Part shown: piece by piece, positions 23,499-35,304 of the stretch
How the letters are laid out: each line of letters starts with the position of its first letter
Position numbering within the stretch: position 1 is the stretch's first letter
DNA from: Pseudomonadota bacterium
Lineage (GTDB): Bacteria > Desulfobacterota > Syntrophorhabdia > Syntrophorhabdales > Syntrophorhabdaceae
Direction: 5' to 3'
Assembly (NCBI GenBank): GCA_026388315.1
Contig: JAPLKA010000087.1
Span: 1 to 42,614, forward strand
DNA length: 42,614 nucleotides
Position numbers and translations under genes: made by a program
Notes under the pieces: generated by a model
Databases searched by the model: none
Told to the model about the DNA's origin: nothing
What the model saw: the letters and a program-made list of their open reading frames with translations, nothing else

Positions 23499-23526
23499 TT
23501 GACATTTATAAAAAGTAACGTAATAT
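23499..23526 (+). promoter_or_regulatory. Strong promoter of the small exported-protein cluster
   Basis: TTGACA (23499-23504) and TAATAT (23521-23526) are separated by 16 bp, only 30 bp before the first ATG. This near-consensus promoter is among the best in the window and suggests high expression of the cluster that follows. Confidence 0.75.
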
Positions 23527-23556
23527 AGTAAATGAACTAAAAAAAAGGAGGGCGTT

Positions 23557-23934
23557 ATGGATCACAAAAAACATTTTTCAAAGGTCATTTGTTTTGGTTT
23601 TGCAAGCATGATGATACTCATGCTAATGGTGTCGTCAGTGGGAGCTCAATCGCAAGCATGCGTCTTTTTGAAAGTAGGCGCAGGGTACGCTGCAGAGATG
23701 CGGGTAACCTCAGCCAGTTGGCAGACCGATTGGTCAGGCAGTTTCCCCATTGGCAGCACCAAATGTCAACCGTTAGCGAACCTCGCATCCGGCGCGTCGT
23801 ATACCGTCGAGGTAAAGGCAATAATGGGGAAAACGGTATCCTGTAGTCCCCAAATCCCCTACAACCCTTCCTATACAGGTAATATAACATACTTTGCTTC
23901 CGGAACTACCCTGAGCGTCAAATGCGAACAGTAA
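23557..23934 (+). CDS. Small secreted four-cysteine protein (family A)
   Basis: A 125-residue protein I cannot assign to a named family. A signal peptide spans about residues 1-31 (hydrophobic core ICFGFASMMILMLMVSS, cleavage near GAQ). The mature part of about 94 residues is predicted all-beta from its alternating pattern and has four cysteines, in ACVFLKVG, STKCQPL, TVSCSPQ and SVKCEQ. The protein encoded at 24480-24821 has the same layout, with a cysteine near the start, then G-(Y/F)-x-A-x-(M/L)-x-V, then G-x-T-K-C-x-x-L, and a final cysteine in the last strand. RBS AAAAGGAGGGCG is very strong. It is the first gene behind the promoter at 23499. Confidence 0.82.
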   Translation: MDHKKHFSKVICFGFASMMILMLMVSSVGAQSQACVFLKVGAGYAAEMRVTSASWQTDWSGSFPIGSTKCQPLANLASGASYTVEVKAIMGKTVSCSPQIPYNPSYTGNITYFASGTTLSVKCEQ

Positions 23935-23960
23935 TACGCTGACATGGTCGTTCCTTTGGG

Positions 23961-24015
23961 ACAAGTCTTTGCTTTGCACAACAATGTATGTCAACGATAA
24001 GGGCTTGTCCCGTTT
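23961..24015 (+). terminator. Possible attenuating hairpin after the first family A gene
   Basis: GGGACAAG (23961-23968) and CTTGTCCC (24003-24010) form a perfect 8-bp stem with a 34-nt loop, followed by GTTTTAAAA. It could terminate part of the transcripts and so keep the first gene more highly expressed than the rest. Confidence 0.45.
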
Positions 24016-24045
24016 TAAAATAGCAGGAAAATTGTGGGAGATGTG

Positions 24046-24406
24046 ATGAAGAATCCACTCCCGCTCGTTTTCTTATTGGTTTTTTGCCGTCAGTGTTTTT
24101 GTTGAGGGTTGCACTATGAGAGAAAAAGCTGCCAACCCTGAAGCATCTACAATCAATGATCTCCGTAAAATGGCTAAAGATTACCTGAAATACCATTACC
24201 ATTCCAACTACACAACTACAACTTTCAGTATGTGCTGGAGCTGGAAGCGTTTTCAGTGCAAACCCTGTAGCGGCGAGGGTAAATGGAGCTACCTCGCCGG
24301 ATGGTGCAATGGTAACTACGAAGGGCGCAAAGATAATTGCTGCGCATGCTGGTCAAACGAGAACTGCGGCTTTAATAAACAGGGAGATGAGGACTGCCAA
24401 TATTGA
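24046..24406 (+). pseudogene. Cysteine-rich lipoprotein (family B) interrupted by a one-base frameshift
   Basis: From ATG 24046, behind GGGAG, the frame reads MKNPLPLVFLLVF and then leaves frame to end at TGA 24103-24105. Removing one T from the T6 run at 24080-24085 restores a complete lipoprotein signal, VFAVSVFVEGC, joined to the open frame ending at 24406. That frame carries the cysteine-rich domain FSMCWSWKRFQCKPCSGEG, WSYLAGWCNGNYE and a C-terminal CCAC/C/C group. The joined product would have about 119 residues. Translation from ATG 24116 alone would lack a signal. The cause may be decay, a sequencing error in the homopolymer, or phase variation by slippage. The same domain recurs at 26085-26519. 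Confidence 0.7.
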
Positions 24407-24479
24407 AAGCAACATGGACCTGGAAATATTGTTTATATGTTTGATAAAAAAATCGGCTGTTTAATAAAGGAGGTTTCAC

Positions 24480-24821
24480 ATGAGAAAGATATTTATGATC
24501 TTTATTACGTTTTGTCTTTTTTTTGGATTTGGCAACATTACCAAAGCAGATTCAAAGACTATATGCTTGCATAACAAGGGGGGTTTTGTTGCCAAGCTTG
24601 TTGTCCATGCGGACACACAGGAATATGAAACGGGCGATGTCACACTCGGGCTCACAAAATGCGTTCAGATTCTCGAGGCTGTCCCCAACATAGAAGCGGA
24701 TGTTACCCTGGTAGGGGGCGGGGGCAGTTGTACCTACAATTGGTCTACCGGGAATCCCCTCCCTGACTCCTTCACAATCACCACGAAAGGTACGATCTTT
24801 AACTTTAGCTGCTCACCCTAA
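24480..24821 (+). CDS. Small secreted four-cysteine protein (family A)
   Basis: A 113-residue protein with a signal peptide of about 24 residues (IFMIFITFCLFFGFG, cleavage near KA-DS). The mature part has four cysteines in the same order as the protein at 23557-23934: TICLHNKGGF, LTKCVQIL, GGSCTYNW and NFSCSP. Shared spacing and the late (Y/F)-x-(A/T)-(S/K)-G-T-x-(L/F) strand make the two clear paralogues despite low identity. No named domain is recognised. RBS AAAGGAGGTTTCAC lies immediately upstream. It probably folds in the periplasm with two disulfides. Confidence 0.82.
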   Translation: MRKIFMIFITFCLFFGFGNITKADSKTICLHNKGGFVAKLVVHADTQEYETGDVTLGLTKCVQILEAVPNIEADVTLVGGGGSCTYNWSTGNPLPDSFTITTKGTIFNFSCSP

Positions 24822-24914
24822 CTGCACAAGCGTGCCGTAGCAGGATGATCTGCAAAGGAGGGATTTGTGATCCAGATATATAATATATCAAAAATTCCGA
24901 GAAGGAGGAATGTT

Positions 24915-25289
24915 ATGAAACTGACAGTATTGGTGGTCCTATTTATGACGGTGAGTATTCTGGGATTTGCAGGATCTGGTTATGCCGACTGCTCGAACTT
25001 CACGGCTTACTGTTATGCAAATGCCGGAAATGGAAGCTATTTAGGAAATGCCAGTTGCCCCTGTTGCTACAAATGGTATGATCTTAGCTGTGAATTTTGT
25101 GGTGGAGACGCCTCACCGGCTAATCACTGCAACGGCGATTATTCAGCGTGTCAGGGCAACTGCTGGGGATGTAGCACCAAACTGGACGGTTACCAGCCAG
25201 CCTGCTGGGACAACAACGGTAATTGTTACGGAGCAGGATGCTCTGGTTCTTCTATCGGCCGCAAAAAATCATCCGATTCTAAGCGTTGA
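24915..25289 (+). CDS. Small secreted cysteine-rich protein (family B)
   Basis: A 124-residue protein started at ATG 24915 behind AGAAGGAGG, which gives a clean signal peptide (residues 1-25, cleavage near GYA-DC). A GTG at 24867 also has a GGAGGG but would add 16 residues before the signal. The mature part has eighteen cysteines in about 80 residues, including CPCCYKW, CEFCGG, HCNGDYSACQGNCWGC and CYGAGC. The CNGxYxxCxGxCxGC motif is shared with the gene at 26085 and, in weaker form, with that at 24046. The tail GRKKSSDSKR is basic and cysteine-free. The density suggests a disulfide-locked or metal-binding miniprotein. Function unknown. Confidence 0.8.
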   Translation: MKLTVLVVLFMTVSILGFAGSGYADCSNFTAYCYANAGNGSYLGNASCPCCYKWYDLSCEFCGGDASPANHCNGDYSACQGNCWGCSTKLDGYQPACWDNNGNCYGAGCSGSSIGRKKSSDSKR

Positions 25290-25372
25290 ACCGGACGGGG
25301 TATGTTGTGTATTCGGTCAGGTACGGGCTGGAGATGGCTACAGAATATTACAAAGAACAGGAGGTACCACCA

Positions 25373-26071
25373 ATGAAAAAGCTTTTAATCTTTTATTTTG
25401 CCCTCATGATCCTCACCGTTTTTTCAACCGCCGACCTCAGCGCCGCGGAAAAGACACAACCTGCACCAAAGAAGGCAGCGTCCAAGAAGGTGGAACGTTC
25501 TATGATACAGACCTTTGCCGGAAGGGTAAAGACAGTTAATATTGAGAAGAAGACCATCACCATTGCCGCCATGATCGAGACCGAATACTACTTTTCTGAA
25601 GGAGATACCCTTTTTAAAGAGTTTGAGACCGATGAGATGGACATCGCCTTCGATGTCTCCACGGCAAAGTTCCAGGGGGTTAAAGACATCTCCGGCGTTG
25701 TCAGAGGCCAACTTATCCGGGTAGGCTACGATAAGAAAGGAAACAGCTATATCGCACATACCGTCCTTATCATCCCTAAAAGACAGCCCCGTTCCTCCAT
25801 CCAGACCTTCTTGGGGAAAGTGACTGCCTTTGATCCCGCAAAGAAGACCATGACCGTAAAGGCGACCATAGAAGGAGAGTTTTTCCTCCAAGAGAAGGAT
25901 ACGGTTCTTAAGGAACTTGTCATCGATGAAGTGGACATTGCCTTCAATACCTCAGAGGCCACCATCGTGGGCAACAAGACTATCAAACCCGGTGATACCG
26001 TCCGTGTAGGTTATAACAAAAAAGGAAACACCTACATAGCCCATACGGTACTGAAGATTGAGAAGAAGTAG
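25373..26071 (+). CDS. Secreted protein with two tandem copies of one beta domain
   Basis: The start is ATG 25373, nine bases after AGGAGG; the frame is open further upstream but overlaps the previous gene. The 232-residue protein has a signal peptide (residues 1-25, cleavage near SAA-EK), a Lys/Ala/Pro linker, and two repeats at about 43-136 and 141-232. Paired landmarks are IQTFAGRV/IQTFLGKV, DEMDIAF/DEVDIAF, RVGYDKKGNSYIAHTVL and RVGYNKKGNTYIAHTVL. It has no cysteine. Each repeat looks like a small beta barrel of the kind seen in periplasmic OB-like proteins. No named family is recognised. It lies between cysteine-rich genes and may be a periplasmic partner or chaperone of them, which is only a guess. 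Confidence 0.8.
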   Translation: MKKLLIFYFALMILTVFSTADLSAAEKTQPAPKKAASKKVERSMIQTFAGRVKTVNIEKKTITIAAMIETEYYFSEGDTLFKEFETDEMDIAFDVSTAKFQGVKDISGVVRGQLIRVGYDKKGNSYIAHTVLIIPKRQPRSSIQTFLGKVTAFDPAKKTMTVKATIEGEFFLQEKDTVLKELVIDEVDIAFNTSEATIVGNKTIKPGDTVRVGYNKKGNTYIAHTVLKIEKK

Positions 26072-26084
26072 AAAAAGGAGGTAT

Positions 26085-26519
26085 TTGCACATCTCTGTTG
26101 CCGTGATTTTCTCCCTTGGTGTGTTCTCCGGACACGCCGATGCATTCTGCGACGACATGAAAATTGGCTGAGATATCGACGGGAGCGCATCTCAGACTGT
26201 GGCGACTACCACTTTCAGCATGTGCTATAGTTGGAAACACTCTGAGTGCAAACCCTGTCACGGTAGCGGTCAATGGAGCTACCTCGCCGCGTGGTGCAAC
26301 GGCAGCTATGAAAAATGCGGGGGAAAGTGCCAGGGGTGTCAGCACAGTTCAAGCTGTTGTGTTGACACAGGAGGAAAATGGCACAACTGCCATGGGACAC
26401 CTTATTGGCAGCAAACATCACGGGGAGAGTGGAGAAGAAGAGGAGTCCGGTTAAGGCAGGTATGCACCGTCCCGGCTTACGAAGATAGTGGCAAAGCCGG
26501 CCCTTATCTGATATTATAG
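26085..26519 (+). pseudogene. Cysteine-rich protein (family B) with in-frame TGA
   Basis: A strong AAAAGGAGG (26073-26081) precedes TTG 26085, which opens a hydrophobic leader (HISVAVIFSLGVFSGHADAFC). After 28 codons comes TGA (26169-26171), and the same frame continues to 26519 with TTTFSMCYSWKHSECKPC, WSYLAAWCNGSYEKCGGKC and more cysteines, clearly homologous to the gene at 24046. The leader lacks the usual basic N-terminus. TGAGAT at the stop pairs with ATCTCA (26188-26193), making a hairpin that begins at the TGA. It is either a decayed gene or a selenoprotein; a start at GTG 26199 would give a leaderless product. The tail after about residue 65 of the domain (SRGEWRRRGVRLRQ) is unlike the paralogues and may be frameshifted. 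Confidence 0.6.
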
Positions 26520-26528
26520 GGTAAGTAC

Positions 26529-28031
26529 ATGAAAAAGTTCTGGTTAATTTTTGTTATTCTCATATTCCTGTCTCCTCAGGGATATTCTGAGGAAGTCCAG
26601 GAAAACCAACAGAAAAAACTGCCAAAGATGACCCTTGCCGATTGTGTAATGCTGGCCGTAAAGAATAACCTCGACATCAGGAGCAATTTTCTGAGTCGTA
26701 TCAGCGATAGGTTTAATCTCAAGGTTGCCGAATATAAGTTTACCCCTTTCGGCGTGGGCGCCATTCAGCTCTCAAGCCAGCGCATTTCGACAAACCCGCA
26801 GGATATACCAAGGACAACGGGTTCCAATCAGGACGCCCTATTCAGCACTTTGGTGACTATTCCTACGGGAGGCACATTCAATTTTACCTGGGATAACCCT
26901 GCAAACAAAGCGGATGTTCAGCAACTCAACCAATATTCTCCCACCTGGTCGCTCTCTTTTGCGCAGCCTCTTCTAAGGGGCGGCGGGGTCGAGGTCACTA
27001 CAGCATCGGTGAAGATCGCACGTGTTAGTGAAGAAATCAGCGTCCTTAATTTAAAGGGGACAATAATCAATACAATAGTCTCGGCCATACAGCAATATAG
27101 AACCTACTCCCAGGCACTGAGCCAGCTCAAGATAGATCAGGAGGCGCTGGACACATCGCAGAAGACTTACGAGACAAACAAGAAACTGATAGATGCCGGA
27201 AGGATGGCAAGAACGGAGCTTGTCCAGTCAGATGCCGATATATCCCAGAGAAAACTACAGATTGTCCAGGACAGGAACAATATTGAATCTGCGCGACTCG
27301 CCCTGATCCAGATACTCAACATCGACCAGAACACCTTTTTCGAGCCCGTGGACGAGGGCGATGTGAAGGCTACTCCTCCTTTTTTTCAGGAAGCCATGGA
27401 GATAGCCAGGAAAAACAGCCCTAACTACCTGCAGGCATTGCAGAACGTTGAGACAGCGAGATTAAATTACGTGGTAGCGAAAAACAACCGCCTCTGGGGT
27501 CTTTCCCTGGGGGCAGGCGTTGGACGCAGCGGCATAACCGGCACCCAATACCCCTTTGTCTATGATGCATTAGCAAGCGCGGGGAAGAGTGACTGGAATG
27601 CGGGAATAACCCTTTCCATCCCTTTTAATGACCTGACCTATGAGCAAAATTATCTCACCAACAAGGTAGCCTATGACCAGGCAAAGGTTAGCCTGAAAAA
27701 AACGGATATTACTCTATCGATAGCCGTACAGAATGCTATACGGACCGTAGAAATGCAGTTTCAACAACTGGAGCTTGCCAGGCAGACGCGCGTTTTTTCG
27801 CAGCAAAAACTTGATATAGAAAACAAAAAATTGAAAGCCGGCCAGACCTCTAATTTTCAATTGGTCAGCTTCCAGAATGATCTCATAAATGCGCAGAACA
27901 ATGAACTTTCTAATTTTATCAATTACATTAATGCCCTGACGAACCTCGATCAGACGCTCGGTACTACATTAAAAACATGGAGGATCGAGGTAAAGAAGGA
28001 TGACAATGAAGTAAAGGTGGCAGACAAATGA
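26529..28031 (+). CDS. TolC-family outer-membrane efflux protein
   Basis: A 500-residue protein with a signal peptide (residues 1-20, cleavage near GYS-EE). Residues 30-490 show the two long alpha-helical hairpin repeats of the OEP family: LADCVMLAVKNNLDIRS at the start of the first and EAMEIARKNSPNYLQALQNVETARLNYVVAKNN at the second. Gly/aromatic strands between them form the barrel. It would act as the trimeric exit channel through the outer membrane. It is the first of four genes encoding a complete tripartite ABC exporter and starts ten bases after the cysteine-rich reading frame ends, which links export to those small proteins. Confidence 0.9.
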   Translation: MKKFWLIFVILIFLSPQGYSEEVQENQQKKLPKMTLADCVMLAVKNNLDIRSNFLSRISDRFNLKVAEYKFTPFGVGAIQLSSQRISTNPQDIPRTTGSNQDALFSTLVTIPTGGTFNFTWDNPANKADVQQLNQYSPTWSLSFAQPLLRGGGVEVTTASVKIARVSEEISVLNLKGTIINTIVSAIQQYRTYSQALSQLKIDQEALDTSQKTYETNKKLIDAGRMARTELVQSDADISQRKLQIVQDRNNIESARLALIQILNIDQNTFFEPVDEGDVKATPPFFQEAMEIARKNSPNYLQALQNVETARLNYVVAKNNRLWGLSLGAGVGRSGITGTQYPFVYDALASAGKSDWNAGITLSIPFNDLTYEQNYLTNKVAYDQAKVSLKKTDITLSIAVQNAIRTVEMQFQQLELARQTRVFSQQKLDIENKKLKAGQTSNFQLVSFQNDLINAQNNELSNFINYINALTNLDQTLGTTLKTWRIEVKKDDNEVKVADK

Positions 28032-28048
28032 TGAGAGGTGATGACAGT

Positions 28049-29506
28049 ATGGCAGAACCGGAACAACCAGATAAGACCCATACCAATTCTTTCGAGGAAA
28101 TGATAGAAAAGCACGAAAAGCTCAGGGAGGCATATCTTGAGGTTGAGCGTGAATGTAATACCATCATGGCAGACTTGAAAAAGGCACATAAGATACGCAT
28201 CTTTGTAACACTCTTTATTATTCTGGTATTTGTGGTCGTCGGGCTTTATGTATGGAAAAAGATGCCTTACATAGAGAGACGTGTAGAGAAAAGCCTGCAC
28301 ATGAAGGAAAAGACGTCGACAGTGAGGACATTCACAGTAAAACCCGGACCAATATCGGAAAGCATTGCCCTGGAGGGGACGTTGAAACCCAGCGAAGTAG
28401 TAAATATCGTGAGCCCCTTTGACGGAGTTGTAAAAGAAACATCATTCCAGTACGGAGCATTTGTAAAAAAAGGTCAACCCCTGTTAGAACTGGATATATC
28501 CGATATTGAAGTTAAATATGACGGGGCAAAGACAGATTACATAAAGGCGGCCGACAAAGTAAAGGATATGCGGGACTGGGAAAACAGTGATGATGTGATG
28601 AAAGCGAAGCGCTCCCTTTCCAAATCAAAAATGACATTAGAAGCTCAAAAAAAGACGTTTCAGGCTACCGAAGGTCTGTTTAAAGAAGGGATTGTCGCCG
28701 AAACGGAGTATGAAAACGCCAAGCAACAATATTCGAGCTCCAAGCTTGACTATGATAATGCAGTTGATGAGTTGAAAAACGCGAGGGCAAAAGGCGCTGG
28801 GAATTATCTTGAAGTAGCTGTATTGGATATGAAAAGCGCTAAAATAAAATTCGACGAATTAAAAAAACAATTTGACCGGGCGAATGTGACTGCACCCATT
28901 GACGGAATCGTTGTCTTGCCTTCTTCCGGAGATAAAGACAAGAAAGGTAAAAGGGTTGACAAAGGTGTTTCCTTCACTCGCGGGGAGACGCTTATCACAA
29001 TAGGAAATATCGAGAATCTTTCCGTTCAGGTTGATGTAGACGAAATAGAGGTGCTGAAAATAAAAAACGGTCAGGATGTGACGGTAACAGGGAATGCCTT
29101 TCCCGGCATAGTGCTGAAAGGAAAGGTATCCAGCATCTCATCACAGGCAACACAGGATGAGGCACAGAAAGGGCCGCCTTCCTTCAGGGTGATCATCCTC
29201 CTCGGCGGACTTCCCCAGTCGGAGATGGATAAGATTCGTCTCAAGGGGATACCTCAGTCGGTGATGGAGAAGATACGCCTTGGCATGTCCGCCGACGTTA
29301 AAATATTAACCTACTCAAGGGCTGATGCCCTTACCGTCCCTATCAAGGCAGTAACAGAGGGGGATGGGCGTTATTTCCTTGCCGTGAGAGATAAGGGAAC
29401 CGGCAAACCCGTGAGGGTGCAGATTGAGACCGGCATTACCACCCCCGATTCGGTGGAGATTATCAACGGTATAAAAGAAGGCGATGAAGTGCTGATTGAG
29501 GAATGA
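28049..29506 (+). CDS. MacA/HlyD-type periplasmic adaptor protein
   Basis: A 485-residue membrane fusion protein. I prefer ATG 28049, eight bases after GAGGTG; ATG 28028, overlapping the tolC stop, is an alternative. A cytoplasmic coiled segment of about 45 residues precedes one membrane helix (FVTLFIILVFVVVGLYV). Then come a biotinyl-lipoyl half motif (VSPFDGVVKETSFQYGAFVKKGQPLLEL), a long helical hairpin, the second half (VTAPIDGIVVLPSSGD) and beta-barrel and membrane-proximal domains ending in GDEVLIEE. It would connect the ABC permease with TolC. The long N-terminal cytoplasmic part is unusual for MacA. Confidence 0.9.
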   Translation: MAEPEQPDKTHTNSFEEMIEKHEKLREAYLEVERECNTIMADLKKAHKIRIFVTLFIILVFVVVGLYVWKKMPYIERRVEKSLHMKEKTSTVRTFTVKPGPISESIALEGTLKPSEVVNIVSPFDGVVKETSFQYGAFVKKGQPLLELDISDIEVKYDGAKTDYIKAADKVKDMRDWENSDDVMKAKRSLSKSKMTLEAQKKTFQATEGLFKEGIVAETEYENAKQQYSSSKLDYDNAVDELKNARAKGAGNYLEVAVLDMKSAKIKFDELKKQFDRANVTAPIDGIVVLPSSGDKDKKGKRVDKGVSFTRGETLITIGNIENLSVQVDVDEIEVLKIKNGQDVTVTGNAFPGIVLKGKVSSISSQATQDEAQKGPPSFRVIILLGGLPQSEMDKIRLKGIPQSVMEKIRLGMSADVKILTYSRADALTVPIKAVTEGDGRYFLAVRDKGTGKPVRVQIETGITTPDSVEIINGIKEGDEVLIEE

Positions 29507-29509
29507 TTC

Positions 29510-30199
29510 GTGCTGCGGTTAATCGACATACACAAGACATATAAGGTCGGCCCTGAAGAGGTGGAAGTTCTCAAGGGCATCTCCATGACAATAGAGAAAG
29601 GGGAGCTGTTCGCCATCATCGGGCCGTCAGGTAGTGGAAAATCAACGTTGATGAATACCATGGGGCTCCTCGATAAACCGACATCGGGATCGTATTTTAT
29701 TGAAGATACACAGATAACCTATGATGATGACAGGGTGATTTCAACCCTGCGGAACAGGAAGATAGGTTTTGTGTTTCAATCATACAATCTTCTTCCCCGT
29801 AAGACCGCCATTGAGAACGTTGGCATCCCGCTCATATATCGAGGCCTTAAAAAAAACGAGATCAAAGAGCAATCAATGGAATATCTCAAGAGGGTTGAGA
29901 TGGATAAGTGGGCCAACTATAAGCCGAACGAACTTTCAGGGGGTCAGCAACAAAGGGTTGCAATCGCACGGGCCCTGGTAGGAAACCCGGCAATTATCCT
30001 TGCCGATGAACCGACCGGCGCCCTCGACACCCAAACAGGGCAGGAAATTTTAACATTTTTCAAGCAGTTGAACGAGAAGGAGGGGATTACCTTTGTGATT
30101 ATTACCCATGACCCTGATATAGCGAGGCAGTGCAAGAGAATGGCGGAACTTAGGGACGGAGTCATCACCGACAGACAGGATCCAACAGGCAAACAATGA
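29510..30199 (+). CDS. MacB/LolD-type ABC transporter ATPase
   Basis: A 229-residue ATPase starting at GTG 29510, three bases after the adaptor stop. Walker A is GPSGSGKST, the signature LSGGQQQRVAIARALVG, Walker B IILADEPTGALD, and the switch histidine lies in FVIITHDPDIA. The RNRKIGFVFQSYNLLPRKTAIENV segment is diagnostic of the MacB/LolD/FtsE group, which drives periplasmic processes mechanically. In E. coli MacB ATPase and permease are fused; here they are separate as in YknYZ. Its stop overlaps the permease ATG (ATGATG). Confidence 0.93.
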   Translation: MLRLIDIHKTYKVGPEEVEVLKGISMTIEKGELFAIIGPSGSGKSTLMNTMGLLDKPTSGSYFIEDTQITYDDDRVISTLRNRKIGFVFQSYNLLPRKTAIENVGIPLIYRGLKKNEIKEQSMEYLKRVEMDKWANYKPNELSGGQQQRVAIARALVGNPAIILADEPTGALDTQTGQEILTFFKQLNEKEGITFVIITHDPDIARQCKRMAELRDGVITDRQDPTGKQ

Positions 30200-31380
30200 T
30201 GCTTCGGGTCAATATAAGTGAGGCATTGGAGAGCCTCTCAAGCGCCAAGCAACGGACTGTTTTGGCGCTCATCGGTATTATTATAGGTATTGGTTCTGTT
30301 ATCGGTATGATATCCATCGGGGAGATAGTCAAGAATCAAGCCCTTAAACAGTTCGAGGATATGGGCATTAACATCATAACGGTCTCTAAGGATTACGACA
30401 GCCCGAACAAAACGGCAACGTTCCCCCTTTCGGGAACCCTCGCCCTTGGCAAACATGTTCCCGGCATTGCAAGTGTTGCACCCTATATTGTTTCTGGTAC
30501 CCAATTTTCACATGGCAGCAAAAACGCTTTCATCGACATGCTTGGTGTGACACAATCTTTTTTTGATATATGCAAACTGACAGTCCGCGAGGGACGACTG
30601 ATATCCGACCTCGACAGCTACAGATATTTTTGTATCATAGGGTCCGATTTTGCAGATTTTTTGCAAAAATCGGGGACCAAAAATGTCCTTGGGTCGGATT
30701 TTAAGTTCGGAAAGCGCATCTACACAGTTATCGGGGTTATCAATAAGGTTTCTGAAGGCGGGGGAATGCTGCCGGGTGGGCTCAATAAAGGAGTAATCAC
30801 CCATATCACCACTGCATCGAGGAGCTTTGAAGAAAGAGGTATCAACACGTTTCTGGCAAGACTGAAAAAAATTCAGCCCGTTTCTGTCCTGCAAAAAGAA
30901 TTAAACCACTATTTCGGTGCAAAACAGAGAGGGCTCACCATAAAGGTAAGCACTGCCGAGCAGTTGATAGAAGACATGGGCAAACAGATGCGGCTTTTTA
31001 CGCTTCTCCTTGGCGCTATCGGAAGTATATCTCTTATCGTAGGCGGTGTCGGCGTAATGAATGTAATGCTCGTTTCCGTTACGGAGAGGAGAAAGGAGAT
31101 CGGTATCCGCCGGGCCCTTGGCGCTCAGCAAAGTGACATACAGAGTCAGTTTATCGTAGAATCTGTTACCCTCTGTCTTGCAGGGGGCATCATTGGTATA
31201 CTGCTGGGGATTACAGTTTCTTATATCTTCGCATACTTTGCGAAGTGGGATTTTATTGTATCCTATGCTGCGATTCTTCTTGGTGTCGGTGTTTCAACCG
31301 CAGTCGGTGTTTTTTCCGGTTTCTATCCTGCCCGTGAAGCAGCACGGGTTGATCCCATTACCGCACTCAGGGGTGAATAG
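30196..31380 (+). CDS. MacB/FtsX-type ABC transporter permease
   Basis: A 394-residue permease. The N-terminal helix (TVLALIGIIIGIGSVIGMISIGE) is followed by a large periplasmic MacB_PCD domain (about residues 45-235) and an FtsX domain with three helices, containing the conserved GGVGVMNVMLVSVTERRKEIGIRRALGA and ending EAARVDPITALRGE. This is the normal full-length form. With the three preceding genes it makes a complete TolC-MacA-MacB system. A short inverted repeat GAATAG/CTATTC follows the stop, but no convincing terminator. Confidence 0.92.
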   Translation: MMLRVNISEALESLSSAKQRTVLALIGIIIGIGSVIGMISIGEIVKNQALKQFEDMGINIITVSKDYDSPNKTATFPLSGTLALGKHVPGIASVAPYIVSGTQFSHGSKNAFIDMLGVTQSFFDICKLTVREGRLISDLDSYRYFCIIGSDFADFLQKSGTKNVLGSDFKFGKRIYTVIGVINKVSEGGGMLPGGLNKGVITHITTASRSFEERGINTFLARLKKIQPVSVLQKELNHYFGAKQRGLTIKVSTAEQLIEDMGKQMRLFTLLLGAIGSISLIVGGVGVMNVMLVSVTERRKEIGIRRALGAQQSDIQSQFIVESVTLCLAGGIIGILLGITVSYIFAYFAKWDFIVSYAAILLGVGVSTAVGVFSGFYPAREAARVDPITALRGE

Positions 31381-31622: not shown

Positions 31623-34600
31623 TCAGAACCCCATCCTCAGCCCTGCATTCACGCTTTGGGCCACATATTTGTTCTCGCCGATCTGAACATCATAGTTTAT
31701 GTAGACAGACATATCGCGGACGGTAAAAGCGGTAATCCCTGCACCGAGGGAGAGAAAGTTCCTGTCAGGGGACATGGTCTGGATACTGAAGGGTGAGCTC
31801 CCCTGTGCGAGACGTGAAGTAACGTTCTGGCTGTCCCGTGAAAACTCATATCCGTAGGAGGCGCGGATACCCGGCATGATGACTGCCTTATCGGTCTGCC
31901 AGGTATAGGACACCCTGGCTCCTGCATTCCCCAGAAGGGACTCGGTGTTCTGTCTGTCCACATTGAGATTTATGGCGCCTGCACCACTCTCGGTATAGCT
32001 GTCTGTATTGAGTTTGGTATATTGTAAGGATACATTCGGGGTGATGATCCAGTTGCTTTTGCGGAGGTCGTAGCCTGTACCTGTGTAAGCGGTAAACTGG
32101 TTGCCGTTAGGGGATGATGCTGCAGTACGGTCAAGTCCAGGGAAGACGATACGGCGGGTATTGTCGTAGTTGGCAAAGCCGTAGCTTATGCTGCCGTCCA
32201 TGTAGAAGTTCTTTTTATAGTAGGTCCCGTAGGTTCCCAGGGTATAGCTGTCCATCTTCACCTTGCTGCCCATATTGTCCACATTGGCCCTGGAGTTGTT
32301 GAGCCCTAACATGAGACCGGCGATAAAGCTTTTGGAAAAGTGGTAGTCGGAACCCATGGTGATACCCACACTGGTGAAGTTATACCCTGTCATATCCGGT
32401 GTGTCTTTCTGGTCCCCGTAGACGGCATTGCCCTTCACAAAGAAACCCCATCTTTCATCCACCCCCGAGGGAAGCATACCGGTAAGATCCGGATTGATAT
32501 CAGCAAGCATTACCGGTGCTCCATTCCCGTTCTTGAAGTACAGCCCCTTGAGACTCGTACCCCGTATCCCGTACCTGAGATCGCTTAAGCGTTCAGAGAG
32601 ATTCCCTGTCTGGAAGGAGGCGCTGCTAATCCCCATGCCGGATTGGGCATCACTGCCCTTGGGGGCAAGCTGATCTAAGGCATATGCTGTCTGTCCATAT
32701 GCGGGGAGGGCATCAATGACGGTTAAGACTGTATCAAGGTCCCCTGTTGCGGTATTCCCCACAGAATTGAGCATGGAGCCTACCGCCCTCTGGTTCACGG
32801 TGAGGTAGGGGAGGAGGGTCTGGTTGGTGTAGTCTCTCTCTACCATGAGGTACGCCTGGTTGGGAATATCATACTTGGGTTTAAAGAGTACCGTCGGGGT
32901 AATATTGGTAAGAAGAGAGGAGAACTGTCCCGTTATCCCTGATGAAGCAGTAAGGATGGTGAATTTATTCTGCGGCTCCGGGACGTATCCACCTGACCAT
33001 AGAACCTTGAGGCTACCGCTGAGGTTGGCTGTACCGTTTATGGCAAGGAGATCCTTGCTGGTCGTGGAGGCTATCTCGATATCAAGGGTTCCCCCTGGGC
33101 CTTGGGTATAATTGCCGATAATATTGAGGGTGCCGATGGACCCTCCCGGCGATACAACTCCATTGTTGTTCACGTTGCCAAGCGTCCCGTAACCACCCAC
33201 TGTGGCCCCTGGATTCACGGTCAGCGTGCTGCTATGGGAAGCCCCCGAGGTAAGGAAGAGCATCCCTTCGGACACGGTGCCCTGACCGGTATAGGTATGG
33301 ACGCCGGAAAGCGTTAGGGTCCCGGTCCCCGCCTTTGTGAGACTTCCTGGACCGGAGATGACGCCGGAAAGCGTCAGGGCATTCCCATTGGTATCGAACG
33401 TACCGCCGCCGGAATTGAGGGTTGTGTTCCTGGCTGATGTCATGTCCGCCGACACCTGCAGGGTTCCTCCATTAAAAAGCAGGCCGCCGGACAATGCCCC
33501 CAAACTGGCGTCCTGTGTGACATTGATGACGCCGCCATTGAGATACGTACCCCCGGTATAAGATGCGGGGCCCCGTAAGGTCAGTGTTCCCGATCCGGTT
33601 TTGTAGAGGCTGCCGGAGCCGTTGAGGGTTCCGTTGTTGGTGAAGGCGTTGTTGCCGGCATCGAACCAGATGTTTCCCGAAATGGTACCGGAATTAACGA
33701 GGGTATTCCCTGTGCCCAGAAACTTCGCTGCGTAGGAGTCTGTTCCGGAAGCGCTGAGGGTGCCGGTATTGGTGAGGATGTTATTATCGCCCTGGGCTAA
33801 AAAAGCGACACTGTTTGTTCCCGAAACCGCGACCGTACCCTGGTTAACCACCGTGTTTCCGGTATTGACCCATATTCCCCACAGGTCTGTCGAGTTTCCC
33901 GTGATGTTTCCGGCTACAGTGTTTGTTATTGTATTGTTGTCGTAGACGTGGATGCCGTTTCCGCCGGACAACGGGGTGATACTGCCGGAATTAGTGATGA
34001 TGTTGTTGCTGACAGCGTCTATGCCGGTGATGACGTTGCTTATGGCAGCGCTGTTGTTGATGGTGTTGCTGCTTCCCGCAAGGATGCCTGTAGGCTGTTT
34101 CTCTGCCGAGTCCGGTGCGATGGCGGCCGTGTTGGTGATAGTGGAATTGTTCACTCCGGAATTGTCGAAAAACTGAAACCAATCGATAAATTGATTAGCC
34201 TGGTCAAGTACACTTACGGTGACGTATCTGCCGTTGACGGAAACGGTAGCGTAGTTGTAACGTAGGGCAAGGATGTCGCCGGGGTAGAAGATGGTAAGGT
34301 TGCACTCCTCACCGGTTTCGCACCCTATAGGGGCTCCGCCGGTACCGGCGAGCACTTCATGTGTTCCGTCATGAAGGGTGCGGAAGTAGAGGTGCTCATG
34401 TCCGGCAAACAGAATGGAGGCATTGGTATTTGTAGCACTGCCTGAAGTGGTGATCATTTGCCAGAAATCCGCCATATTGCTGTCGACCGAAAGATGTCCA
34501 GGAGTCCATGACGGGACATGGGTAAGCATGAAAGTATGGGCTGAGTTGTTGTTTTGCAGAAGGCCTTTTATCCAGTCCTGTTGCGCCTGGCTGACGCCGT

Positions 34601-35222
34601 ATGACGGCTCAATCGCGTTTGAGGTAGCATAAAAACTGTCGGCAACGATGAAGAGAGAATTGCCTATACGGAATGAGAAGGCCAACTTATCGTAACCGGC
34701 GGGGCCGTTCTGCATCACGATGGGGGAGAGGTCGCTTGGCTTGTTAAACATGGCCTGGAATTCCGTCTGCCTGTCCAGGGGGGCCGGGGTTTCCCCACTC
34801 CTCGTGTATATCTCATGGTTGCCTATGGCGAAAGCCACGGGGATGCCCGCGCCCTCTATGCGATCCGTAAACCCGGTTTTGAAATCTGTCAAATTGGTCG
34901 TGCCACCCCTGTAGGCTGCGTCGCCGCCGAAGATCACTACCTTTGGGGCGGGGTTCTGGGCAAGGATAGAGTTCACGATGGGGATGAGAACACTCCAACT
35001 GATGACATCGCTGTTTGCATCCCCACGGGTGTCTGCCACCCAGACGAAACTCTGTGATTGGTCCGCATATACTGGAGTAACCCGGCAGATGATTGCAATA
35101 ACAAGTGAGAATGTCATGAGAAGAAACGCAGATATCACATATCCGCTTCTGATTGACGTCATTTGCGGAATCCGGGACAAAATATATTGAACACAGACTG
35201 ATAGGAATTTACTTTTCAGCAT
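31623..35222 (-). CDS. Autotransporter with N-terminal metallophosphoesterase passenger
   Basis: About 1,199 residues from ATG 35222; TTG 35240 and ATG 35162 are alternatives. A long basic/hydrophobic leader (helix ISAFLLMTFSLVIAIIC, cleavage near VYA-DQ) is followed at about 58-330 by a calcineurin-like phosphoesterase: FVWVADTRGD, VVIFGGDAAYRGG, AIGNHEIY, LTHVPSW and LFAGHEHLY. The first motif has DTR in place of D-x-H. Residues 350-790 are Asn/Thr/Gly-rich beta-helix repeats, with two or more passenger-associated repeats (GTLTLRGPASYTGGTYLNGG, GTLTLSGVHTYTGQG). From about 910 a 12-strand barrel ends in LRMGF. It would put a phosphodiesterase or phosphatase at the cell surface. The substrate is unknown. 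Confidence 0.9.
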   Translation of the reverse strand: MLKSKFLSVCVQYILSRIPQMTSIRSGYVISAFLLMTFSLVIAIICRVTPVYADQSQSFVWVADTRGDANSDVISWSVLIPIVNSILAQNPAPKVVIFGGDAAYRGGTTNLTDFKTGFTDRIEGAGIPVAFAIGNHEIYTRSGETPAPLDRQTEFQAMFNKPSDLSPIVMQNGPAGYDKLAFSFRIGNSLFIVADSFYATSNAIEPSYGVSQAQQDWIKGLLQNNNSAHTFMLTHVPSWTPGHLSVDSNMADFWQMITTSGSATNTNASILFAGHEHLYFRTLHDGTHEVLAGTGGAPIGCETGEECNLTIFYPGDILALRYNYATVSVNGRYVTVSVLDQANQFIDWFQFFDNSGVNNSTITNTAAIAPDSAEKQPTGILAGSSNTINNSAAISNVITGIDAVSNNIITNSGSITPLSGGNGIHVYDNNTITNTVAGNITGNSTDLWGIWVNTGNTVVNQGTVAVSGTNSVAFLAQGDNNILTNTGTLSASGTDSYAAKFLGTGNTLVNSGTISGNIWFDAGNNAFTNNGTLNGSGSLYKTGSGTLTLRGPASYTGGTYLNGGVINVTQDASLGALSGGLLFNGGTLQVSADMTSARNTTLNSGGGTFDTNGNALTLSGVISGPGSLTKAGTGTLTLSGVHTYTGQGTVSEGMLFLTSGASHSSTLTVNPGATVGGYGTLGNVNNNGVVSPGGSIGTLNIIGNYTQGPGGTLDIEIASTTSKDLLAINGTANLSGSLKVLWSGGYVPEPQNKFTILTASSGITGQFSSLLTNITPTVLFKPKYDIPNQAYLMVERDYTNQTLLPYLTVNQRAVGSMLNSVGNTATGDLDTVLTVIDALPAYGQTAYALDQLAPKGSDAQSGMGISSASFQTGNLSERLSDLRYGIRGTSLKGLYFKNGNGAPVMLADINPDLTGMLPSGVDERWGFFVKGNAVYGDQKDTPDMTGYNFTSVGITMGSDYHFSKSFIAGLMLGLNNSRANVDNMGSKVKMDSYTLGTYGTYYKKNFYMDGSISYGFANYDNTRRIVFPGLDRTAASSPNGNQFTAYTGTGYDLRKSNWIITPNVSLQYTKLNTDSYTESGAGAINLNVDRQNTESLLGNAGARVSYTWQTDKAVIMPGIRASYGYEFSRDSQNVTSRLAQGSSPFSIQTMSPDRNFLSLGAGITAFTVRDMSVYINYDVQIGENKYVAQSVNAGLRMGF

Positions 35223-35304
35223 GCAATACGAATAACACAAGAAAAGTAAACTATCAATACGAACGTGCCGATATGAATCTGTTGACGCATAACTGCCGAA
35301 ACCG

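What the first reader, a model, noticed from the sequence alone, without database searches (positions are those of the whole stretch)
23499..31380. Small cysteine-rich exported proteins encoded in one cluster with a split MacAB-TolC-type exporter
Six consecutive small genes, nearly all with signal peptides and very strong ribosome sites, lie behind a near-consensus promoter and run straight into TolC, MacA-like, ATPase and FtsX-like genes with short gaps or overlaps. It is established that E. coli MacAB-TolC exports the Sec-translocated, disulfide-bonded heat-stable enterotoxin II. By analogy this cluster may secrete its own disulfide-rich miniproteins after periplasmic folding. I know no described system with these two protein families. 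Whether they are toxins, signals, metal binders or surface coats cannot be read.
Basis: partly seen in the sequence, partly recalled or inferred. Interest (0 to 1): 0.78.

Follow-up and report, generated by a model that had tools for sequence, protein, structure and literature searches.

The report
Split MacAB-TolC exporter, small secreted proteins
A syntroph-related bacterium keeps a conserved three-part export pump beside two undescribed families of small exported proteins; comparison with relatives ties only one family closely to the pump, while the cysteine-rich family is a separable cassette whose copies here are partly broken.

Summary
The locus is real: a split MacAB-TolC-type exporter (TolC, MacA-like adaptor, ATPase, MacB/FtsX permease) lies behind small exported proteins with no convincing Pfam, NCBIfam or PDB relative. 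Relatives in one family of Syntrophales bring three corrections. (1) Two of the six small genes, both of family B, are not intact. B1's signal peptide is out of frame. B2 lost its start and charged n-region, has an in-frame TGA and runs on at its end. (2) Family B and the Cys-rich gene at 24915 are one family with eight invariant Cys. It occurs mostly away from the exporter (18 of 24 copies). (3) Family A is the constant companion: 7 of 8 copies adjoin this exporter, and its promoter is conserved. I therefore favour family A as cargo of a two-step (Sec, then MacAB-TolC) exporter. B2's TGA falls on an invariant Cys and the genome decodes UGA as selenocysteine, but there is no FdhA-like SECIS, so decay is likelier than a selenoprotein.

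The parts
23499..23526 (+). Promoter-like site of A1 (TTGACA, 16 nt, TAATAT)
   Evidence: chance-level count in the window; -35 region and flanks conserved in G024 and G020
23557..23934 (+). A1, family A, 125 aa, signal peptide
   Evidence: 98% identical in G024, 83% in G020; no Pfam, NCBIfam or PDB match
24046..24406 (+). B1, Cys-rich family; signal peptide (from ATG 24046) and body (from ATG 24116) lie in different frames: frameshifted gene or assembly error
   Evidence: G024 reads the signal peptide as one frame with a lipobox-like VEGC and has lost the body
24480..24821 (+). A2, family A, 113 aa, signal peptide
   Evidence: 96% identical in G024, 54% in G020; weak similarity to A1
24915..25289 (+). 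C, intact Cys-rich protein, 124 aa, 14 Cys, signal peptide
   Evidence: Same family as B; 57% identical to the G020 copy
25373..26071 (+). D, 232 aa exported two-repeat protein without Cys; constant neighbour of Cys-rich genes
   Evidence: All 5 strong hits in the family adjoin Cys-rich genes
26085..26519 (+). B2, Cys-rich family; weak TTG start, no charged n-region, in-frame TGA at 26169-26171 on an invariant Cys, run-on C-terminus: probable pseudogene, or selenoprotein
26529..28031 (+). TolC-type outer-membrane factor, 500 aa
   Evidence: PF02321 3.7e-36; 98% in G024, 85% in G020
28028..29506 (+). MacA-like periplasmic adaptor, 492 aa, inner-membrane anchored
   Evidence: HlyD_D23 5.6e-19, TIGR01730 above cut-off; 95% G024, 79% G020
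29510..30199 (+). ABC ATPase, MacB/LolD type, 229 aa
   Evidence: Best NCBIfam match MacB, 253 bits, below the full-length cut-off
30196..31380 (+). MacB-type permease (MacB_PCD + FtsX), 394 aa, separate from the ATPase
   Evidence: PF12704 2.3e-31, PF02687 5.9e-23

Best explanation
Genes 26529-31380 form a MacAB-TolC-type tripartite exporter in which the MacB ATPase and permease are separate proteins. Its most likely dedicated cargo is family A (A1, A2), small exported proteins. They would cross the inner membrane by Sec, lose the signal peptide and fold in the periplasm. The MacB-type permease, driven by the cytoplasmic ATPase, would then push them through the adaptor and TolC, as proposed for STII (MacAB-TolC) and Aap/CexE (Aat). 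The Cys-rich B/C proteins and protein D form a separate exported cassette that sits beside this exporter in two genera and elsewhere in others. In this genome C and D are intact, while B1 and B2 look decayed. Shown: gene order, homology, conservation, co-distribution, lesions. Inferred: Sec export, family A as cargo, direction and purpose of export.
For: Exporter domains. The block A1...TolC-MacA-ATPase-permease is kept in G000, G024 and G020, two genera, although the flanking genes differ. Family A is found in 4 of 39 genomes; 7 of 8 copies adjoin this exporter, and G024 has three. The -35 region of A1 is conserved across both genera. Cys-rich plus D occur without the exporter in G036 and G034, and Cys-rich without D in G031, G032, G033, UBA4054 and G354. 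G024 has no C or D and only a remnant of B1, but keeps A and the exporter. MacB-family pumps are described as exporting periplasmic substrates, including a Sec-translocated disulfide-bonded protein (PMC5985334), and the Aat system exports small Sec-translocated proteins with split MacB-like parts (PMC7943197).
Against: No direct link between any small protein and the pump. The same exporter (about 45% identical adaptor, 58-60% permease) lies in seven genomes of genus g12; in the six whose surroundings were read, no family A or Cys-rich gene was found nearby, and in the one read in detail (G031) it lies with STAS and HATPase genes instead. One family A copy (G034:C61) has no exporter nearby. 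All seven genomes of the family with Cys-rich genes also have the exporter (Fisher p 8e-6, not corrected for kinship), which leaves room for a functional link with that family too.
Confidence: 0.45

Rival explanations
1. One reading: the exporter is dedicated to both families, including the Cys-rich miniproteins, which fold with disulfides in the periplasm before export.
For: Cys-rich genes adjoin the exporter in G000 and G020. All seven genomes of the family with Cys-rich genes have the exporter somewhere. STII is a real precedent.
Against: 18 of 24 copies are away from the exporter. G024 keeps the exporter without intact copies. Three exporter genomes have none. In this genome two of three copies are damaged. 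The Cys number in the mature part is odd in 5 of 15, so full pairing is not general.
Confidence: 0.2
2. The exporter serves something else (envelope stress, lipid or toxic compound efflux) and the small proteins are neighbours only.
For: In genus g12 the exporter has no small-protein neighbours of these families; in G031 it sits with STAS and HATPase genes and its adaptor has an N-terminal PAS domain, which suggests signal-controlled efflux.
Against: Family A is held next to the exporter in two genera despite changed flanks.
Confidence: 0.3
3. The Cys-rich proteins are periplasmic or surface metal-binding proteins of a metal-handling cassette, independent of the exporter. (This rival concerns the Cys-rich family only and can hold together with the best explanation.)
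For: The most distant homologue (G354) lies beside a metal-sensitive repressor and a cation-efflux transporter. A broken copy in G031 lies within about 2 kb of a cation-efflux transporter. Odd Cys numbers in a third of members. D shows only a very weak CusF-like hit.
Against: Most copies have no metal genes beside them; the D hit is far below cut-off.
Confidence: 0.2

Closest known systems
E. coli MacAB-TolC (exports heat-stable enterotoxin STII from the periplasm)
   Same: TolC, MacA-like adaptor, MacB_PCD/FtsX permease, MacB/LolD-type ATPase; proposed two-step route after Sec
   Different: ATPase and permease are separate proteins; the outer-membrane factor gene is in the same gene row; candidate cargo genes adjoin and match no known family
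Aat system (AatPABCD) exporting Aap (dispersin) and CexE
   Same: Split permease (AatP) and ATPase (AatC), TolC-like AatA, adaptor AatB; cargo is a small Sec-exported protein often encoded nearby (PMC7943197)
   Different: No acyltransferase (AatD/Lnt-like) recognised among the genes read around the exporter; cargo acylation not testable; permease matches MacB best here, while AatP and AatC are described as closer to Lol proteins
PvdRT-OpmQ and other MacB-type tripartite exporters
   Same: Same transporter class, export from the periplasm
   Different: No biosynthetic or maturation enzyme seen beside the small genes

Membership tests
MacAB-TolC-type tripartite exporter | MacB-like periplasmic core and FtsX permease domains | tested here: met
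   PF12704 and PF02687 above cut-offs
MacAB-TolC-type tripartite exporter | Periplasmic adaptor and TolC-type outer-membrane factor in the same unit | tested here: met
   HlyD_D23, TIGR01730, OEP; 4-base overlap TolC/MacA
E. coli-type MacB (curated equivalog) | ATPase fused to the permease in one protein | tested here: not met
   Two proteins, each below the 966-bit cut-off; so MacB-type, not MacB itself
MacAB-TolC-type tripartite exporter | Exports substrate from the periplasm | not testable with these tools
   Needs an export assay
Aat lipoprotein secretion system | Lnt-like acyltransferase AatD | tested here: inconclusive
   None recognised by eye among the genes read around the exporter; the rest of the genome was not searched
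Aat lipoprotein secretion system | Cargo related to Aap/CexE | tested here: inconclusive
   No Pfam or PDB-sequence match for family A; fold model too poor (pLDDT 53) to decide
Selenoprotein (B2) | Genome decodes UGA as Sec | tested here: met
   SelB 371 bits, tRNA-Sec with anticodon TCA, FdhA with in-frame TGA
Selenoprotein (B2) | TGA aligns with a conserved Cys in homologues | tested here: met
   Cys in all 14 other aligned members; but about 20-24% of single-step nonsense changes in such Cys-rich genes would also hit a Cys codon
Selenoprotein (B2) | bSECIS hairpin downstream of the TGA | tested here: inconclusive
   Weak hairpins, not more stable than shuffles; lacks the GGUCU apical loop of the genome's own FdhA
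Selenoprotein (B2) | Intact gene with a usable start | tested here: not met
   No ATG; TTG only 3 nt from GGAGG; ATG and charged n-region absent against homologues

The most novel reading that the evidence does not exclude
B2 is a functional exported selenoprotein: the UGA at 26169 inserts selenocysteine at an invariant cysteine of an exported Cys-rich protein family, encoded directly before a MacAB-TolC-type exporter.
Probability: 0.13. Interest if true: 0.65.

Novelty: new member of a known kind. Interest (0 to 1): 0.38.

Why it matters
MacAB-type pumps have few known protein cargoes. Family A, confined in these searches to four genomes of one Syntrophales family and held next to this exporter, is a short list of testable candidates. 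The Cys-rich family, with eight invariant Cys and no match in the libraries searched, is an undescribed exported family worth naming, but it should not be presented as the cargo of this pump.

Tried and rejected
Sec reading of B2's TGA: kept as the novel case, judged unlikely because of the lost start, the missing FdhA-like SECIS loop, the run-on C-terminus and a damaged sister copy. PDB sequence profiles: nothing convincing. Viral contigs: no Cys-rich homologue. Phylum-wide search of 395 genomes: one homologue outside the family. Two paper searches for a described system of this make-up gave none that fits by title and abstract, and one on exported Cys-rich selenoproteins likewise. RiPP-type peptide reading dropped: signal peptides in intact copies and no modifying enzyme seen next to them.

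Full report
What is in the window. The window is the whole of contig C87 of a 3.80 Mb draft genome; its relatives are Syntrophales, and the one named homologue is Syntrophaceae bacterium UBA4054. The four exporter genes are as described: TolC-type factor, MacA-like adaptor, ATPase and MacB_PCD/FtsX permease, overlapping or nearly so. NCBIfam places ATPase and permease closest to MacB, but each far below the full-length cut-off because the two halves are separate proteins.

The small genes. A1, A2, C and D are intact, with plausible signal peptides and GGAGG sites 5-8 nt from ATG. B1 and B2 are not. B1's signal peptide and body lie in different frames; in the near relative G024 the same stretch reads as one frame with a lipoprotein-like end, and most of the body is deleted there. 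A signal-peptide-like stretch from 26085 leads to a TGA at 26169-26171 and then to the Cys-rich body. Against four homologues the ATG and the charged n-region are missing, and the sequence just before tolC that G024 and G020 share is replaced in the window by B2's run-on end.

Families. B and C belong to one family: eight invariant cysteines over 15 members, including the position of B2's TGA. No Pfam match reached cut-off and no PDB sequence matched convincingly; the members scanned against NCBIfam gave nothing. The family is narrow: 7 of 46 genomes of the class, and one genome outside the window's family among 395 of the phylum. A1 and A2 are a second, also unmatched family.

Does the exporter travel with them? 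The adaptor has orthologues in 10 of 39 family genomes: the window's own, G024 (95%), G020 (79%) and seven of genus g12 (about 45%). In G020 the small genes (L013) and the exporter (L097) are on two contigs that both break inside tolC, so the block is very probably conserved in another genus, but A1 points the other way there. In G024 the exporter stands with three family A genes and without C, D or an intact B. In the g12 genomes read, the exporter stands without any of these genes; in G031 it has STAS and HATPase genes upstream and a PAS domain on its adaptor. Cys-rich genes: 6 of 24 copies adjoin the exporter and 18 do not (counted by hand). Family A: 7 of 8 copies adjoin it. Protein D: every strong hit adjoins Cys-rich genes. 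At genome level the Cys-rich set is nested in the exporter set (Fisher p 8e-6), but the genera are clustered by descent, so this is only weak support.

Mechanism. MacB-type pumps are described as working on substrates already in the periplasm, with STII as a protein example (PMC5985334), and Aat as a split relative with small Sec-exported cargo (PMC7943197). Applied here, the best candidates are A1 and A2. This is inference; nothing in the sequence proves export.

The TGA. The genome has SelB, tRNA-Sec with anticodon TCA and a formate dehydrogenase with in-frame TGA, so UGA decoding is possible. Yet 20-24% of single-step nonsense changes in these Cys-rich genes would also hit a Cys codon. The hairpin after FdhA's TGA has a clear GGUCU loop and B2's has not, and the gene shows other lesions. 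I put the selenoprotein at about one in eight.

Limits. The genomes are drafts, so contig ends may hide neighbours in some g12 cases (for example G032 and G036). No same-species genome was available to check the lesions. Signal peptides were judged by a simple hydropathy script. Structure models were too weak to use.

Noticed in passing
window 31623-35240 (-): Autotransporter with a calcineurin-like phosphoesterase passenger and PATR repeats, also next to the exporter in G020 but not found in the stretch read of G024.
   Followed up: partly
L100 7157-11412 (G031): Exporter of genus g12: STAS and HATPase_c_2 genes upstream and a PAS domain fused to the periplasmic adaptor; in L102 and L103 the scanned stretch showed no PAS, but it began inside the frame.
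   Followed up: partly
L085 9031-10826 (G354): Most distant Cys-rich homologue beside a metal-sensitive repressor and a cation-efflux transporter.
   Followed up: partly
L055 16-1985 (G034): Four tandem Cys-rich genes with a half-length protein D between them.
   Followed up: no
L013 9325-10269 (G020): Protein of 314 aa with a signal-peptide-like start between D and A2, no Pfam match above cut-off.
   Followed up: no
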